A stretch of 47,068 bases of DNA from a virus. The stretch covers positions 1 through 47,068 of the IMG/VR virus record IMGVR_UViG_3300044808_000019. One strand, given 5' to 3'. This document shows positions 10,976 through 38,919 of this stretch, in pieces. Every line of letters begins with the position of its first letter. The stretch's first letter is position 1. The notes beneath the pieces are model-generated. The model did no database searches. It was given only the letters and a program-made list of their open reading frames with translations, and was not told where the DNA came from. The position numbers and the translations under genes were made by a program.

Positions 10976-11227
10976 GTGGAAAGGATTGACCGCCTCACGA
11001 TGGTAGACGGAAACAACATTGGCGCGGATTCGTGGTCAGAGTGGCGGCGGCACGTTCTTTTAGAAGCGGAGTCGCAGCGCAAGACCCTTGAACGTATCGA
11101 GACGCAAATGAGCGATCTTAAGACCGACATCGCCCTCCTAAAGTACAAGTCATCACTATTCGGCGCGTTGGGGGCGGGCGTGGTGGTTTTAATTTACGCG
11201 CTGGCTCAGGGTTTGATGAAGACATGA
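10976..11227 (+). CDS. XhlA-like coiled-coil membrane protein
   Basis: This 83-residue protein has a coiled coil at residues 28-58 (LLEAESQRKTLERIETQM and on) followed by one membrane helix near the C-terminus (SSLFGALGAGVVVLIYAL). That order is known from haemolysin XhlA-type proteins that accompany phage holins. The start is uncertain: the GTG at 10976 has GAAGG very close, and the ATG at 11000 has no good site. It overlaps the receiver-domain gene by ATGA. In 10810-10975 upstream I see no gene, only a small CGGAC/GTCCG hairpin. Confidence 0.55.
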   Translation: MERIDRLTMVDGNNIGADSWSEWRRHVLLEAESQRKTLERIETQMSDLKTDIALLKYKSSLFGALGAGVVVLIYALAQGLMKT

Positions 11228-11616
11228 AGCGTGTGTTGATCGGCGAAGACAGTCCCGACCTCGTGATGGGCTTGCGCTATTTCTTGGAAGGCGCACCGTT
11301 CAGTTACGACGTAGCGACGACAGGCCAGGAGGTGACGGCGCTACACCACTTGGCGCAGGTGGGCGGGAAGCCCTACGACCTGTTCGTGCTAGACATCGCC
11401 ATGCCTATGAAGTTAGGCACGACCGCCTTGCGTGAGATTAGAGAGGGGGGCGATACGAAGACCCCGGCGATGATTATGACGGGGCTTCCCCCCAATCAGG
11501 CCATGAAAGAGATCAAGGGTTTGGGCGTGTTCTGCGTACTCTACAAGCCCCGCGCCTACGAGGAAATCGTGCGCCGGATCAGCTTGGCTTTGGAGGGCGT
11601 TTGTGATGATAAGTGA
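11224..11616 (+). CDS. stand-alone response regulator receiver (CheY-like)
   Basis: This 130-residue protein is one full receiver domain. All signature residues are visible: the acidic pair Glu 8-Asp 9 (VLIGEDSPD), phospho-acceptor Asp 57 (LFVLDIAMP), Thr 86 (MIMTG) and Lys 108 (LYKPRAYEE). No output domain follows. Receivers accept phosphate from histidine kinases and change partner binding. It overlaps genes on both sides (ATGA at its start), so it belongs to the phage operon and is not a stray host fragment. A phage receiver could divert host two-component signalling or sense host state; this is inference. Confidence 0.92.
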   Translation: MKRVLIGEDSPDLVMGLRYFLEGAPFSYDVATTGQEVTALHHLAQVGGKPYDLFVLDIAMPMKLGTTALREIREGGDTKTPAMIMTGLPPNQAMKEIKGLGVFCVLYKPRAYEEIVRRISLALEGVCDDK

Positions 11617-13920: not shown

Positions 13921-15491
13921 AGAAGTTCGACGACTACAGGTATGGCGACGCCCGAAAGCTGTTCGTCAATAAAGACGGGACGGAGCGGAGGACACCTACG
14001 GCTATCCTTGCCACGCAGTTCCGTAAAGGTAATCACTGGCAGAACGGGAAAGGCTTCATTGGTGAAAAACCGATCCCCGGTCAGGCGGGCTTCGTCCCCA
14101 CCATGCTCGCCATTAAAAACGGCTTCGTCTCCGAAAACGTAGTCGGGGAGGTTGTCGGAAATCACGATTCAGGGGTGTTAGGCCGTGAGCCTGTCTGGAG
14201 TTTTCTTCAAATAGATAGCAAAGAGCCGATCAGGGTAGATAAAAAGGTATATGAACCCCTCACGACTTGGTGGAACGACCGCGAAGTCTTAAACGATCTT
14301 CAAGAGAGCGTCCGCATCATGCTCTGTGAAGAGATAACCGTCAGGCGCATCTACATCCCGCAAGGATTGTTGGACGAACAGGGGAAGGACGAAGAGGGTA
14401 AGTTAAAGCCGTCGGGAGACGTTGTTAAAGCTCTGGAACTTGTCTACACGGAAACCCTGACCTCAGATGTTGCCGGAGTCTTCACCGACCCGGCTACACA
14501 GCGTCAGATCGGTGTCTACCTGTTCGAGCGGGAGTTGCCAGATGGTTCTAAGCAGAAGTGTGCGGAACTCTCCTACCTGAACCCTGAACGCCAGACCGTC
14601 CACCGGGTAGTTGTTGACGGCACGTCCGAGCCGGAAGAGTTCGGCCCCTACGATCTTGGTGGCCGCTTGCTCATCTACGAGATGCGGCGGGAGGCGTTGA
14701 TCACGGAGCAAGTTCAGTCGAACCAAAAGGCATTGAACCTCGCGCACACGATGATGATGCGAAACGTGAATCTGGCGGGCAACCGCGACACCACGATCAC
14801 GAACGCGCAGCACCCGAAGGCCAAGAAGAAGATCGCCACAGCAGAAGGTGTCAAGGAAGTGATGGAAGACGCGCCACACGTCAAAGGTGCGGGCGCGGTC
14901 ATGTACCTGCTTGGCCGTCCCATCTATAACGAAAAGAGTCAGGTGATCGGCTACACGAACCCGAACGTGATTATCAGTGACCCCGTACCCGTCGAAACGT
15001 TCAAGGAGACGCGAGATCACTTCTATGCGGCCATCTTGGGACAATGCCAGCAGCGGCATAAGCTGATCTCAGGAGACGCCACGGCATCGGGCAGATCGAG
15101 AGAGCAAGCCAGAGCGGAGTATGAAGGCAGTTTGAAGGCCACCAAGAGCGTTGTTGACGCTGCCGGGCGGTGGCAACTGGAAACCGTTCTGAGACTGGCC
15201 GCACAGTTGGCAGGTAAGACGAGTGAGTTTATCAACCTGCGCGCCGACTTCAACTCTCTGATTGATACGGGGCCGCTCAGTCCCACGGAGCGGCAAGAGA
15301 ACCGGGCGGACGTTAAAGACAAACTGCTTGCCCCTCAAACCGCCATGAGTCGCAATAACGTGGAAGACACGGACGCGGAATATACGCGCATGGAAGAGGA
15401 CGCGAAGCAACAGAAGAAGTTGCGCGATCTCTTGCCGCCTATAGTGCCGCCGCCATCTGAGGATAAAACGGGAGATAAGTTGTCAGCGTGA
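13917..15491 (+). CDS. portal protein
   Basis: A 524-residue protein directly after the large terminase, coupled by ATGA. The portal forms the ring at one head vertex through which DNA passes. Support comes from position, length, and a C-terminal section (residues 360-450) with GDATASGRSREQARAEYEGS and a long helix, which is typical of portal stems and crowns. The tail (residues 490-524) is charged and Pro-rich. Sequence identity to a specific portal family is weak to my eye, so the call rests mainly on gene order. Confidence 0.8.
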   Translation: MKKFDDYRYGDARKLFVNKDGTERRTPTAILATQFRKGNHWQNGKGFIGEKPIPGQAGFVPTMLAIKNGFVSENVVGEVVGNHDSGVLGREPVWSFLQIDSKEPIRVDKKVYEPLTTWWNDREVLNDLQESVRIMLCEEITVRRIYIPQGLLDEQGKDEEGKLKPSGDVVKALELVYTETLTSDVAGVFTDPATQRQIGVYLFERELPDGSKQKCAELSYLNPERQTVHRVVVDGTSEPEEFGPYDLGGRLLIYEMRREALITEQVQSNQKALNLAHTMMMRNVNLAGNRDTTITNAQHPKAKKKIATAEGVKEVMEDAPHVKGAGAVMYLLGRPIYNEKSQVIGYTNPNVIISDPVPVETFKETRDHFYAAILGQCQQRHKLISGDATASGRSREQARAEYEGSLKATKSVVDAAGRWQLETVLRLAAQLAGKTSEFINLRADFNSLIDTGPLSPTERQENRADVKDKLLAPQTAMSRNNVEDTDAEYTRMEEDAKQQKKLRDLLPPIVPPPSEDKTGDKLSA

Positions 15492-15736
15492 GCTTCAAGC
15501 CCATACAACACGGACGCGAGATCGTCGCACACGGTTTTGACTGTGGGCACTGTTCGATGAACGCCGCGACGGTAGCAAACGGCGTCCTCTCATTCAAGAA
15601 TCGCCACGGCGGGGAGATACACGCGAACGCGGTTGACCTCAATCAGTTGTTCAAGTGGTATGTGGAGCGGGCGAATAAAACTACGATTGAAAACCTTGAA
15701 AAATTATTGCAGCAGGCAAAGCAATCTGTGGTATGA
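15488..15736 (+). CDS. small hypothetical protein
   Basis: An 82-residue protein in a GTGA overlap with the portal gene. It has a CGHC pair at residues 19-22, with His nearby, and a C-terminal coiled coil. The stop codon overlaps the -10 box of the RNA promoter described next. In other phages small genes after the portal can be head-maturation helpers; nothing specific is visible here. Confidence 0.55.
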   Translation: MSFKPIQHGREIVAHGFDCGHCSMNAATVANGVLSFKNRHGGEIHANAVDLNQLFKWYVERANKTTIENLEKLLQQAKQSVV

Positions 15737-15737
15737 T
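15707..15737 (+). promoter_or_regulatory. extended -10 promoter for RNA gene
   Basis: TGGTATGAT at 15729-15737 is an extended -10 box (TGn plus TATGAT). A weak -35 TTGCAG lies at 15707-15712 with a 19-base spacer. It overlaps the 3' end of the small gene and faces a 325-base region without a protein gene that ends in a terminator. Confidence 0.55.
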
Positions 15738-15755
15738 TCGTGCTGTGTTTGAAAT

Positions 15756-15936
15756 CCTGAATCAAGCTGGTCGGTAAGGCGGCAACGCCCCCAAGAGTTT
15801 ATTCAGGCTGAATAGGTCGCGGCAGTTGGCGGCGCACAACGGGGAATACCTTCGGGGCTTCCTGCTGTCCACGTTCGATTCGTGGTTAGACTTGGTTGAA
15901 TAACAAGCTGGTTCGACTCCAGCCCGCACCGTTCAG
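15756..15936 (+). ncRNA. structured RNA with tRNA-like arms
   Basis: Between a promoter (15729-15737) and a terminator (15965-16012) the sequence folds well. CCTGAAT/ATTCAGG (15756-15762/15801-15807) encloses GGCG-GCAA-CGCC. CTGAA..GGT.GCGG (15808-15822) pairs with CCGCACC.TTCAG (15924-15936) like an acceptor stem with bulges. Inside lie a D-arm-like GTTG-8-CAAC (15825-15840), a UUCG hairpin (15843-15862), CCACG-TTCGATT-CGTGG (15869-15885), CTTG/CAAG, and GCTGG-TTCGACT-CCAGC (15907-15923). The last two named 7-base loops match the T-loop consensus TTCRANY. No normal anticodon arm or encoded CCA is seen, so it is not an ordinary tRNA; a tRNA-like or tmRNA-like decoy is possible. Confidence 0.55.
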
Positions 15937-15964
15937 TAACAATTAAATATCAGGTTCTCTTCTG

Positions 15965-16012
15965 AGCCGACATGTACTGACTCTTGTTTGAGTCTTGCGT
16001 GTCGGCTTTTTT
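15965..16012 (+). terminator. strong intrinsic terminator
   Basis: AGCCGACA (15965-15972) pairs exactly with TGTCGGCT (16000-16007), with an inner GACTC/GAGTC hairpin, followed by six T. It ends the RNA gene and partly insulates the scaffold gene from upstream transcription. Confidence 0.9.
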
Positions 16013-16061
16013 GCGTTTCCAGCCAACCTCCCAGCGGGAGAAACAACGGAGTCCAGCGGAC

Positions 16062-16802
16062 ATGTTGAAACAATACGACAAGCCAGAAGATGTGCCCGAA
16101 GCCTTACGGGAACACTACTCACGACGCGAAGACGGCAAGATGCACGCCGACATCCCGAACGATCACCCGGCCGTCAAGCACAACGCCACACTGCTCAAGG
16201 AAAAGAACGATGCGATTGCGGAGCGCGACACTGCCAAGTCTGAGCTCGACAGCGCGAAGGCCAGCGGCCTCCCGCGCGGACACGAAGCCGTGCCGAAGGC
16301 CGACGCCGAACTCGTCAAAGTTATCAAAGAGGCGGGCATCACGAAGGTCGAAGACTTCGCCACCCTCAAGACCGACCATGACACGTTCAAAGTGAAGGCC
16401 GAGACGGCAGAGCGCGAGAAGCACGCCACCGAAATCGGCGAACTGATGGGATGGGACAAGGAAAAGACCGCCCGCCTCGTCCCCAAAGTCTTCGACCTCT
16501 CGCAAGTCGAATCCCGCACGGGCGCGGATGGCAAAAAGACACTGGTGGCGAAGGTCAAGCAGGGCGACGGGACTTTCATCGAAAAGCCTTTCGCCGATGT
16601 CGTCACCACCACCCCCGATTTAAATGATCTGCTTCCGTCTTTGAAATCCGAGAGCGGCGGGACGCGCGTTCACGGCAGCACGCCGGGCGCGGGCAGTGGC
16701 GGCAACCTGTTTGACTCAATCCGCGAAGGCGTAGCGGCGCAGGAAAAGGGCGCGGCGGCCGAGAGCAAAACGTTGGAGCAACGCCTGCACATAGCAGCCT
16801 AA
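16062..16802 (+). CDS. head scaffold protein
   Basis: A 246-residue acidic protein starting at the ATG at 16062 (GGAG upstream). Residues 45-150 form a long coiled coil (LKEKNDAIAERDTAKSELD and similar). Such charged, helical proteins of the GP20/scaffold type guide capsid assembly and are later removed. The C-terminus (residues 195-246) is Gly-rich, with a final amphipathic helix that would bind the capsid protein. It lies just before the decoration and major capsid genes, the standard place. No protease gene was found nearby, so removal may not need cleavage. Confidence 0.82.
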   Translation: MLKQYDKPEDVPEALREHYSRREDGKMHADIPNDHPAVKHNATLLKEKNDAIAERDTAKSELDSAKASGLPRGHEAVPKADAELVKVIKEAGITKVEDFATLKTDHDTFKVKAETAEREKHATEIGELMGWDKEKTARLVPKVFDLSQVESRTGADGKKTLVAKVKQGDGTFIEKPFADVVTTTPDLNDLLPSLKSESGGTRVHGSTPGAGSGGNLFDSIREGVAAQEKGAAAESKTLEQRLHIAA

Positions 16803-17604: not shown

Positions 17605-18660
17605 ATGCCCGAGATTCTTTCCTACATCGAATCAGTCAAAGAACTGACCGCCCCCGCCCTGACGGTGCGCGCTCAGGCGATTTCGCCGAACGATAACGGC
17701 GAACTCATCTATGACATCTTCTTTCCACGCCAGAACGTCGGAAGCGTGAAGTTGCGCGACATCACGATCCGCAACTTTAGACCGGCGGCGGATCGTCGCG
17801 AATGGAACGGTCGTGGCCGTCTGATCCCGATCCAGACTCCCGACAAGAAAGACCTGAAAATCATCCCCGTCGAGGACTATTCCAAGATTGACGAGGAAGA
17901 GATGCAGGAGCTTTTCGAGAACACGGACGGCGAGGCTGCGTTGATCCGCAGGCGTATCGGCGCGAGCATCCCCGAACGTGTGGACAACCTGACAAAGGCC
18001 GTCTATCGCCGTGTCGAGTTGGACGCAATGAGCGTGTGGTCGAACGGGTACGTGGATCAGGTCGATCCGCAGACGGGACGCGCCTTCCGAACATCTTTCC
18101 AAATCGCAGCCTCGAAGTTGCAAACGGCTTTGACGGCGTGGAATGACGGCAGCCTGAACGCCTATAACGAACTGCTCGCGTGGCTTCGTGATGGGATCAG
18201 CGTCATCGGCCCCATCGAAGGCGTCATGTTGAGACTCGCCACGCAGAACGCTATTCAGGCGGACGCACCCACGCTCCTTAACGGCTACCGCCCGACCATC
18301 AAGGAAATCTCCCAACGCATCACCGACGAACTCGGCAGCCCGTTCAACTTCTTCCAGAACGAGAAGACGATTGACGTGTTCACGGACGGCGGCATCACCA
18401 CGACGCCGACGAAGACGTGGCCGGAGCACAAGATCAACGCGATCCCGGCTGGCAAGCGCGTTGGCGCGACCGCATACGCGCCCGTGGTTCGTGCCGGTGA
18501 AATGGCAAACGAAGTGCCGGAGGCGCGCATTGATAAGAACAGCATTGCGGTCTTCTACGAGCCGGAAAACGGCGGGCGCACGCTGACCATCGAGGCGCAG
18601 GGCAACATTCTCTCCATCCCCGACGAGCAGAAGGTCTGGGGCATTGACGTAGGAGTCTAA
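17605..18660 (+). CDS. major capsid protein (lambda gpE-like)
   Basis: This 351-residue protein matches the Phage_cap_E type in length and layout: a helical N-arm, a long P-domain-like part with GEAALIRRRIGASIPERVDN and VYRRVELDAMSVWSNG (residues 110-150), a central section, and a C-terminal beta part ending in VWGIDVG. It forms the capsid shell with the HK97 fold. It follows the decoration protein gene by 19 bases with AAGGAG upstream, the order known from lambda-type heads. A long antisense frame here is a by-product of codon bias. Confidence 0.92.
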   Translation: MPEILSYIESVKELTAPALTVRAQAISPNDNGELIYDIFFPRQNVGSVKLRDITIRNFRPAADRREWNGRGRLIPIQTPDKKDLKIIPVEDYSKIDEEEMQELFENTDGEAALIRRRIGASIPERVDNLTKAVYRRVELDAMSVWSNGYVDQVDPQTGRAFRTSFQIAASKLQTALTAWNDGSLNAYNELLAWLRDGISVIGPIEGVMLRLATQNAIQADAPTLLNGYRPTIKEISQRITDELGSPFNFFQNEKTIDVFTDGGITTTPTKTWPEHKINAIPAGKRVGATAYAPVVRAGEMANEVPEARIDKNSIAVFYEPENGGRTLTIEAQGNILSIPDEQKVWGIDVGV

Positions 18661-38118: not shown

Positions 38119-38919
38119 ATGAAGACCATCGTCATCGCCGTCGCTAATCAAAAAGGTGGAGTTGGTAAAAGCACGACAGCCGCCATGCTTGCGACCGAAC
38201 TCGCCATGCGCGAGTACGAGACACTACTGATTGACGCCGACCCCCAAGCCAACGCCACCCAGATATTCATTGCCCCTGAGATGGTGCAAGTCTCTCTGGC
38301 CGACGTGGTGATCGGCGAAGGGCGGCCGATCAAAGAGCGGCGCATGACAACGGAAGTTCCCCACCTCGACATCGTGCCCGCGACTCTTGCCTTGGCAAAC
38401 TTCGACCGCGAAAATGCCCTGTCCGTGACCAAGCTGCGCTCCGCCCTTCGTGATCTCGGCAACGCATACGATTTCGTCATCATTGACACCCCGCCGAACT
38501 TCGGCCTGCTCCTGACCGCTGCACTGACTGCCGCTGACTACGTGTTGATTCCCGTACAGGCTGCCCCCTTCGCCCTCTCCGGCCTCAGTGACTTGCTAAC
38601 CGTCATCGGGAACGCCAAAGAATTAAACGAGTCCCTTGCTATCCTTGGGGCGGTCTGCACCATCTACGACACCCGCGTCAGCCTTGCGGGTGCGAGTTAC
38701 CGCGGCCTGACCGAGAAACTTCCCGACAAGACTTTCGAGACCATCATTCACCGGACGGCCAAACTGGAAGAAGCACCGTCCATGCACCAGCCGATCCAGT
38801 TCTATGCGCCGAACTCAAGAGCAGCCGAGCAATACTCTTCCCTGACGGACGAGATGTTGAAGCGCCTTGGAATCTCTGCCAAGGGCAGTTCCCTGCGCGT
38901 CGTGAGGGGTAGCGAATGA
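38119..38919 (+). CDS. parA: ParA-type partition ATPase
   Basis: A 266-residue ParA/Soj-like ATPase. The deviant Walker A KGGVGKST (12-19), LLIDADPQANAT (Walker A', near 36-47) and FVIIDTPPNFG (Walker B, near 119-129) are all present. No N-terminal DNA-binding domain, so it is of the short type. ParA proteins move plasmid or chromosome copies to daughter cells by forming gradients on DNA. In a phage this indicates maintenance as a plasmid prophage. The next gene overlaps by ATGA and should encode the partner. Confidence 0.93.
   Translation: MKTIVIAVANQKGGVGKSTTAAMLATELAMREYETLLIDADPQANATQIFIAPEMVQVSLADVVIGEGRPIKERRMTTEVPHLDIVPATLALANFDRENALSVTKLRSALRDLGNAYDFVIIDTPPNFGLLLTAALTAADYVLIPVQAAPFALSGLSDLLTVIGNAKELNESLAILGAVCTIYDTRVSLAGASYRGLTEKLPDKTFETIIHRTAKLEEAPSMHQPIQFYAPNSRAAEQYSSLTDEMLKRLGISAKGSSLRVVRGSE

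What the first reader, a model, noticed from the sequence alone, without database searches (positions are those of the whole stretch)
15729..16012. RNA gene with tRNA-like arms inside the head operon
A promoter with extended -10, a dense set of helices and a strong terminator mark a transcript of about 270 bases with no protein gene. It has a bulged acceptor-like stem, a D-arm-like hairpin, and two 5-base stems with 7-base TTCGATT and TTCGACT loops (T-loop consensus). It also has a UUCG and a GNRA hairpin. It is neither a normal tRNA nor a tmRNA that I recognise. It could mimic tRNA to bind synthetases, RNase P or elongation factor.
Basis: partly seen in the sequence, partly recalled or inferred. 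Interest (0 to 1): 0.78.

Follow-up and report, generated by a model that had tools for sequence, protein, structure and literature searches.

The report
Phage RNA gene before capsid genes
Between the portal gene and the scaffold and capsid genes of an uncultured phage lies a real, conserved non-coding RNA gene, with its own promoter, a base-paired frame and a terminator, whose interchangeable middle part sometimes looks like a tRNA; it is absent from Rfam and probably controls when the capsid genes are switched on.

Summary
At 15729-16013 there is an extended -10 promoter, a ~265-nt structured RNA and a strong terminator, between a small ORF and the scaffold gene. ARAGORN and Rfam find no known RNA. 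Two perfect tRNA-type T-arms, the only two in 47 kb, sit 38 nt apart (0 of 20,000 shuffles have two).

Homologues at the same place in four other uncultured phages (L002, L125, L236, L211; probably L101) define a family: TATRAT-N7-GUGUUUGA (P1), CUGAAU.../...RUUCAG (P2), an A/U-rich linker, then the terminator. P1/P2 covary. The inner domain is hypervariable (about 40-165 nt). It is a cloverleaf with a T-arm in L236 and tRNA-like in the window, but has no T-arm in L002, L125, L211 or L101. So tRNA mimicry is an optional module, not the core.

L211 and L236 carry scaffold genes unrelated to the window's (L211 an unrelated capsid too), so the cassette is a module of its own. No promoter was seen between terminator and scaffold ATG, so capsid transcription must read through it. 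The best reading is a promoter-leader-terminator control point for the capsid operon that also releases a stable RNA (0.5); a trans-acting sRNA is the main rival. Function is inferred, not shown.

The parts
15707..15737 (+). promoter: weak -35 TTGCAG, 19-nt spacer, extended -10 TGgTATGAT; overlaps the end of the upstream small ORF (15488-15736)
   Evidence: sequence; TATRAT exactly 7 nt before GTGTTTGA recurs in L002, L125, L236, L211
15745..15752 (+). conserved 5' end of the RNA, GUGUUUGA; 5' strand of P1 (predicted +1 at about 15744)
   Evidence: identical in L002 and L125, which were found without using it; covariation of P1/P2
   Evidence: fold, inverted repeat I1; no counterpart in the homologues
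15808..15817 (+). P2 5' strand CUGAAU(A)GGU
   Evidence: fold, covariation
15815..15930 (+). inner domain: tRNA-like, acceptor-like helix GGU(C)GCGG/CCGCACC, D-like arm 15825-15840, UUCG hairpin, two T-arms, CUUG...CAAG hairpin 15891-15907
   Evidence: hypervariable in homologues
15869..15885 (+). T-arm 1, CCACG-UUCGAUU-CGUGG
15907..15923 (+). T-arm 2, GCUGG-UUCGACU-CCAGC, directly abutting the P2/acceptor 3' strand as in tRNA
   Evidence: same arrangement in L236
15928..15936 (+). P2 3' strand ACCGUUCAG
   Evidence: covariation
15937..15957 (+). conserved A/U-rich linker UAACAAUUAAAUA followed by the P1 3' strand UCAGGUUC
   Evidence: compare L236 UAACAACUAAAUAAUCAGGCAU and L118 UUACAAUUUAUCAGGCAU; unique in the window
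15964..16013 (+). intrinsic terminator, hairpin dG -28.6 kcal/mol, T-run
   Evidence: a terminator also precedes the scaffold gene in most of the 19 loci compared (L002 read by eye)
16023..16061 (+). 5' leader of the scaffold gene: CCAACC, hairpin CUCCC-AGC-GGGAG, SD GGAG, hairpin GUCC-AGC-GGAC; a separate element that travels with the scaffold gene
   Evidence: covariation; absent from L236 and L211, whose scaffolds differ
16062..16802 (+). scaffold protein gene, the presumed target of read-through; major capsid gene follows at 17605-18660 (phrog_29)
   Evidence: Phage_scaffold (PF06810) in the same place in L211, below its curated cut-off

Best explanation
A genuine, conserved phage RNA gene that serves as promoter-leader-terminator control point of the scaffold/capsid operon. 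RNA polymerase starts at GUGUUUGA, makes a structured RNA held together by P1 and P2, and normally stops at the intrinsic terminator, releasing a stable RNA of about 265 nt. The capsid genes are expressed when polymerase reads through this terminator, starting here or coming from the portal side. Shown: conservation, structure, position, terminator. Inferred: that read-through is regulated, that P1/P2 and the conserved linker are where the antitermination factor (or the RNA itself) acts, and the timing (late). The tRNA-like inner domain is an optional, exchangeable cap on the P2 helix.
For: Same cassette at the same place, upstream of the scaffold gene, in L002, L125, L236, L211 and probably L101. 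It persists next to non-homologous scaffolds (L236, L211) and an unrelated HK97-type capsid (L211), so position is selected rather than inherited with one gene. P1/P2: 93.6% of cells paired, covariation score 0.318 against 0.200 in shuffles (0 of 500), slid versions at most 0.108. Folds z = -3.8 to -7.0 in six members. Strong terminators (dG -22 to -34 kcal/mol) lie 24-65 nt before the scaffold start in 11 of the 19 loci compared, plus L002 by eye; in several without the P1/P2 RNA (L118, L130, L137) a promoter-like -10 and short transcript remain. L100 has promoter and leader without terminator. No promoter-like site is seen between terminator and ATG.
Against: No transcript data. No antiterminator protein recognised in the phage: 18 structural, early and other proteins scanned gave none. 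No conserved alternative (anti-terminator) fold was found, so regulation would need a factor. Seven relatives, the window's MCP kin L103 and L116 among them, have no strong terminator there, so the control point is not universal. Conservation of an RNA frame with a variable cap also fits a trans-acting RNA.
Confidence: 0.5

Rival explanations
1. A stand-alone trans-acting small RNA: the terminator is simply its 3' end, the conserved single-stranded linker (UAACAAYUAAAUA) or 5' end pairs with or binds a target, and capsid genes are fed by leaky termination.
For: Own promoter and terminator, P1/P2 frame that closes the ends, conserved unpaired linker in several members. The module is independent of the neighbouring scaffold gene.
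Against: Always found just before the scaffold gene, never elsewhere in the hits examined; the inner domain is not conserved; no target could be tested.
Confidence: 0.3
2. A tRNA mimic: the inner cloverleaf-like domain binds RNase P, EF-Tu, a synthetase or tRNA-modifying enzymes, or is processed like a tRNA, and thereby cuts or regulates the structural transcript.
For: Two T-arms in the window and one in L236, against 0 of 20,000 shuffles with two in the window; T-arm abutting the acceptor-like helix in both; L236 arm resembles a class II (tRNA-Ser type) D-arm and matches only the T-arm part of the Rfam tRNA model.
Against: No T-arm in four of six members; acceptor-like helix continues into P2, no free 3' end; tRNA model scores 14.0 bits in L236 (gathering 29) and nothing in the window; ARAGORN calls none.
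Confidence: 0.1
3. A plain transcriptional boundary: promoter and terminator insulate or boost capsid transcription and the RNA between has no sequence-specific role.
For: Relatives keep promoter and terminator with unrelated short sequence between them (L130, L137).
Against: P1/P2 covariation and identical 5' end across five phages are not expected of a spacer.
Confidence: 0.1

Closest known systems
Lambda late leader pR'-6S RNA-tR' (Q-controlled)
   Same: promoter, short RNA of a few hundred nt ending at an intrinsic terminator, then structural genes that need read-through (lambda details from own knowledge; Q engages paused polymerase at the late promoter and makes it resist terminators, abstract of PMC6606751)
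   Different: lies between portal and scaffold rather than ahead of all late genes; conserved RNA frame and covariation; no Q protein or Q-binding site identified
HK022 put RNA
   Same: structured RNA close to the transcript 5' end, upstream of terminators, in a phage operon
   Different: put is ~70 nt, two stem-loops, needs no protein (PMC9378689); here a P1/P2 frame with an inner domain up to 165 nt; antitermination not shown
tmRNA tRNA-like domain / YrlA Y RNA tRNA-like module (own knowledge)
   Same: T-arm stacked on an acceptor-like helix, anticodon arm replaced by other hairpins
   Different: no free CCA end, no tag ORF recognised, only two of six members have it; YrlA model 13.9 bits against gathering 69, E 5.5
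Structured RNA motifs near phage head genes in Rfam (Mu-gpT-DE, DUF2800 RNA)
   Same: conserved structured RNA in phage; Mu-gpT-DE is named after phage head genes (own knowledge)
   Different: no Rfam match at gathering for the window or nine related loci apart from an ordinary tRNA

Membership tests
tRNA (RF00005) | matches covariance model or ARAGORN with full cloverleaf and anticodon arm | tested here: not met
   L236 only its T-arm at 14.0 bits
tRNA (RF00005) | T-arm 5 bp + UUCRANY loop next to a 7-bp acceptor helix | tested here: met
   window (helix with one bulge) and L236; not L002, L125, L211, L101
tmRNA | ARAGORN/Rfam match with tag ORF and resume site | tested here: not met
   only meaningless hits at a 50% threshold, 'tag not identified'
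YrlA / Y RNA-like (RF02553) | reaches the gathering score | tested here: not met
   13.9 bits against 69
DUF2800 RNA (RF02960) | reaches the gathering score | tested here: not met
   14.3 bits against 60.2
HK022 put antiterminator | two adjacent stem-loops, ~70 nt, near the promoter | tested here: not met
   architecture differs (against PMC9378689)
HK022 put antiterminator | suppresses downstream termination in cis | not testable with these tools
   needs transcription assay
Q-type late leader | promoter, terminated leader, structural genes downstream | tested here: met
Q-type late leader | Q protein and Q-binding element | tested here: inconclusive
   no Q family among 18 proteins scanned; most are unknown

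The most novel reading that the evidence does not exclude
A new class of modular phage RNA: a conserved P1/P2 platform with its own promoter and terminator presents interchangeable inner domains, one of them a tRNA-like cloverleaf locked into the transcript without free ends, and the platform acts on RNA polymerase in cis so that capsid genes are read only through this gate.
Probability: 0.15. Interest if true: 0.8.

Novelty: new variant of a known kind. Interest (0 to 1): 0.56.

Why it matters
It adds a structured RNA family absent from Rfam, at a place (the portal/scaffold boundary) where a strong terminator sits inside a structural operon and must somehow be passed. It gives a directly testable case of how phages without known lambda-type regulators might time capsid expression. 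The swapping of a tRNA-like domain in and out of a fixed RNA frame is unusual and could show how tRNA mimics arise.

Tried and rejected
DNA similarity in INPHARED phages with the window (no match), L125 (noise) and L236 (mostly T-arm matches to ordinary tRNA genes); plasmids (noise). Protein searches with scaffold and MCP in phages and scaffold in plasmids: none. Two genome-contig scans found no prophage relatives. DNA patterns: GTGTTTGANATC... gave 95 stretches, none new beyond L002; ATTCAGTTCTAACT only L002 and L125; a looser -10 pattern gave no new member. A free stem scan over all loci was too noisy to use. L184 scored high on the linker but is coding sequence. T-box idea (GGGUGGAA in L002/L125): dropped, no T-box hit and the window lacks it. 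A boxA-like reading of the pyrimidine stretch before the terminator: suggestive only, not tested. ARAGORN at 50-70% thresholds returns weak cloverleaves for most members, including on the wrong strand, so it is no evidence. phi29-type packaging RNA considered and set aside: the phage has ordinary small and large terminase genes.

Full report
Observation. The window is an IMG/VR virus record of 47,068 bases. At 15729-16013 the sequence holds an extended -10 promoter (TG-g-TATGAT), a highly structured stretch and a hairpin with a run of Ts. The transcript 15743-16010 folds at -99.0 kcal/mol, z = -3.78, no shuffle as good. The terminator hairpin alone is -28.6 kcal/mol. It lies between a small ORF (15488-15736) and the scaffold gene (16062-16802), followed by the major capsid gene. 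No tRNA, tmRNA or Rfam family is found. Of 20,000 dinucleotide shuffles of the element, 14 contain at least one and none contains two.

Homologues. Scaffold-protein searches found L002 and L125, with the same promoter spacing, the same first eight bases GUGUUUGA, a stem CUGAAU.../...AUUCAG and a terminator, at the same place. A pattern search TATNAT-N7-GTGTTTGANANC then gave L236 and L211. Both again lie just before a scaffold-position gene; L211's has Phage_scaffold similarity, below the Pfam cut-off, and is followed by a PF05065 capsid. Neither scaffold is detectably related to the window's. L236 repeats the window's GUUCAGUAACAA.UAAAU almost exactly. As a check free of that pattern's bias, the 3' half was scored with matrices trained only on window, L002 and L125: L236 ranks with them among 73 pattern hits, and L211 is supported by its 6-bp P2 and position rather than by linker sequence. 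One high-scoring outsider, L184, is coding sequence. L101 shares P2 and linker but has no recognisable promoter at that spot; L118 and L100 keep only 3' parts.

Structure. P2 (9 pairs) and P1 (GUGUUUGA with UCAGGCAU or, in L211, CAGACAC) form 93.6% of possible cells; covariation score 0.318 against 0.200 shuffled (0 of 500), while sliding the partner drops pairing to 25-40%. Caveats: the strands were joined by hand, one bulged A was removed from the window's P2, P1 in L125 is poor, the choice of partners was made by eye on these same sequences, and only six sequences were available. Individual folds have z from -5.7 to -7.0 in the homologues.

Inner domain. It ranges from about 40 nt (L211) to about 165 nt (window, with its extra 5' hairpin). 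L236 has the best tRNA likeness: P2 as acceptor, an arm GGUAUGCCGGAGCGGUUUAUCGGUGAUACC that resembles a tRNA-Ser D-arm (own comparison from memory, a lead only), a long arm, and T-arm ACAGG-UUCGAAU-CCUGU. The window has the same T-arm-next-to-acceptor arrangement with a 4-bp D-like arm, plus a second T-arm; its MFE fold does not form T-arm 2, but folds within 0.1 kcal/mol do. L125 shares a CUUGG..GA.UAACAAG hairpin and a UUCGA-loop hairpin with the window, but no canonical T-arm. L002, L211 and L101 have none. The tRNA-like module is therefore real but optional.

Function. Across 19 related loci (window included) a strong terminator stands before the scaffold gene in 11 by computation, and in L002 by eye. 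No promoter-like site follows it. Upstream transcription and transcription from this promoter both meet that terminator, so capsid expression requires read-through or a promoter not recognised here. With the promoter kept at the same place, this is the layout of a terminated leader such as lambda pR'-tR'. The conserved P1/P2 frame and linker are the natural site of control, but no factor and no alternative fold was found. A trans-acting RNA remains a serious rival. The scaffold gene's own leader (16023-16061) carries two covarying hairpins around the SD, absent in L236 and L211; it is a separate element linked to the scaffold gene.

Verdict. A real phage RNA family not in Rfam; the tRNA mimicry is a variable cap. 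The mechanism is inferred at about 0.5 confidence.

Noticed in passing
window 16023-16061: Scaffold-gene leader with two small covarying hairpins (tri-loop AGC) flanking the Shine-Dalgarno, conserved in ten phages: 94% of cells paired, 12 cells changed on both sides. Possible translational control, for example by scaffold or capsid protein.
   Followed up: partly
L003 4218-4311 (minus strand): tRNA-Leu(GAG) gene between portal and scaffold in a relative that lacks the RNA gene.
   Followed up: no
L236 7214-7747 minus; L211 2455-2988; also L100, L004, L118: Ntn-hydrolase/proteasome-like proteins (..IVG..GGDS) encoded between portal and scaffold; only a weak Pfam Proteasome hit, in L211 (E 0.0084, below cut-off).
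   Followed up: partly
window 38119-38919: ParA-type ATPase, possibly a phage-plasmid or partitioning system.
   Followed up: no
window 11224-11616: Response-regulator receiver domain protein just upstream of the terminase genes.
   Followed up: no
window 15794-15893: The first T-arm of the window can also be drawn in an alternative cloverleaf (GAGUUUA with UAGACUU) that excludes the other fold; significance not tested.
   Followed up: no
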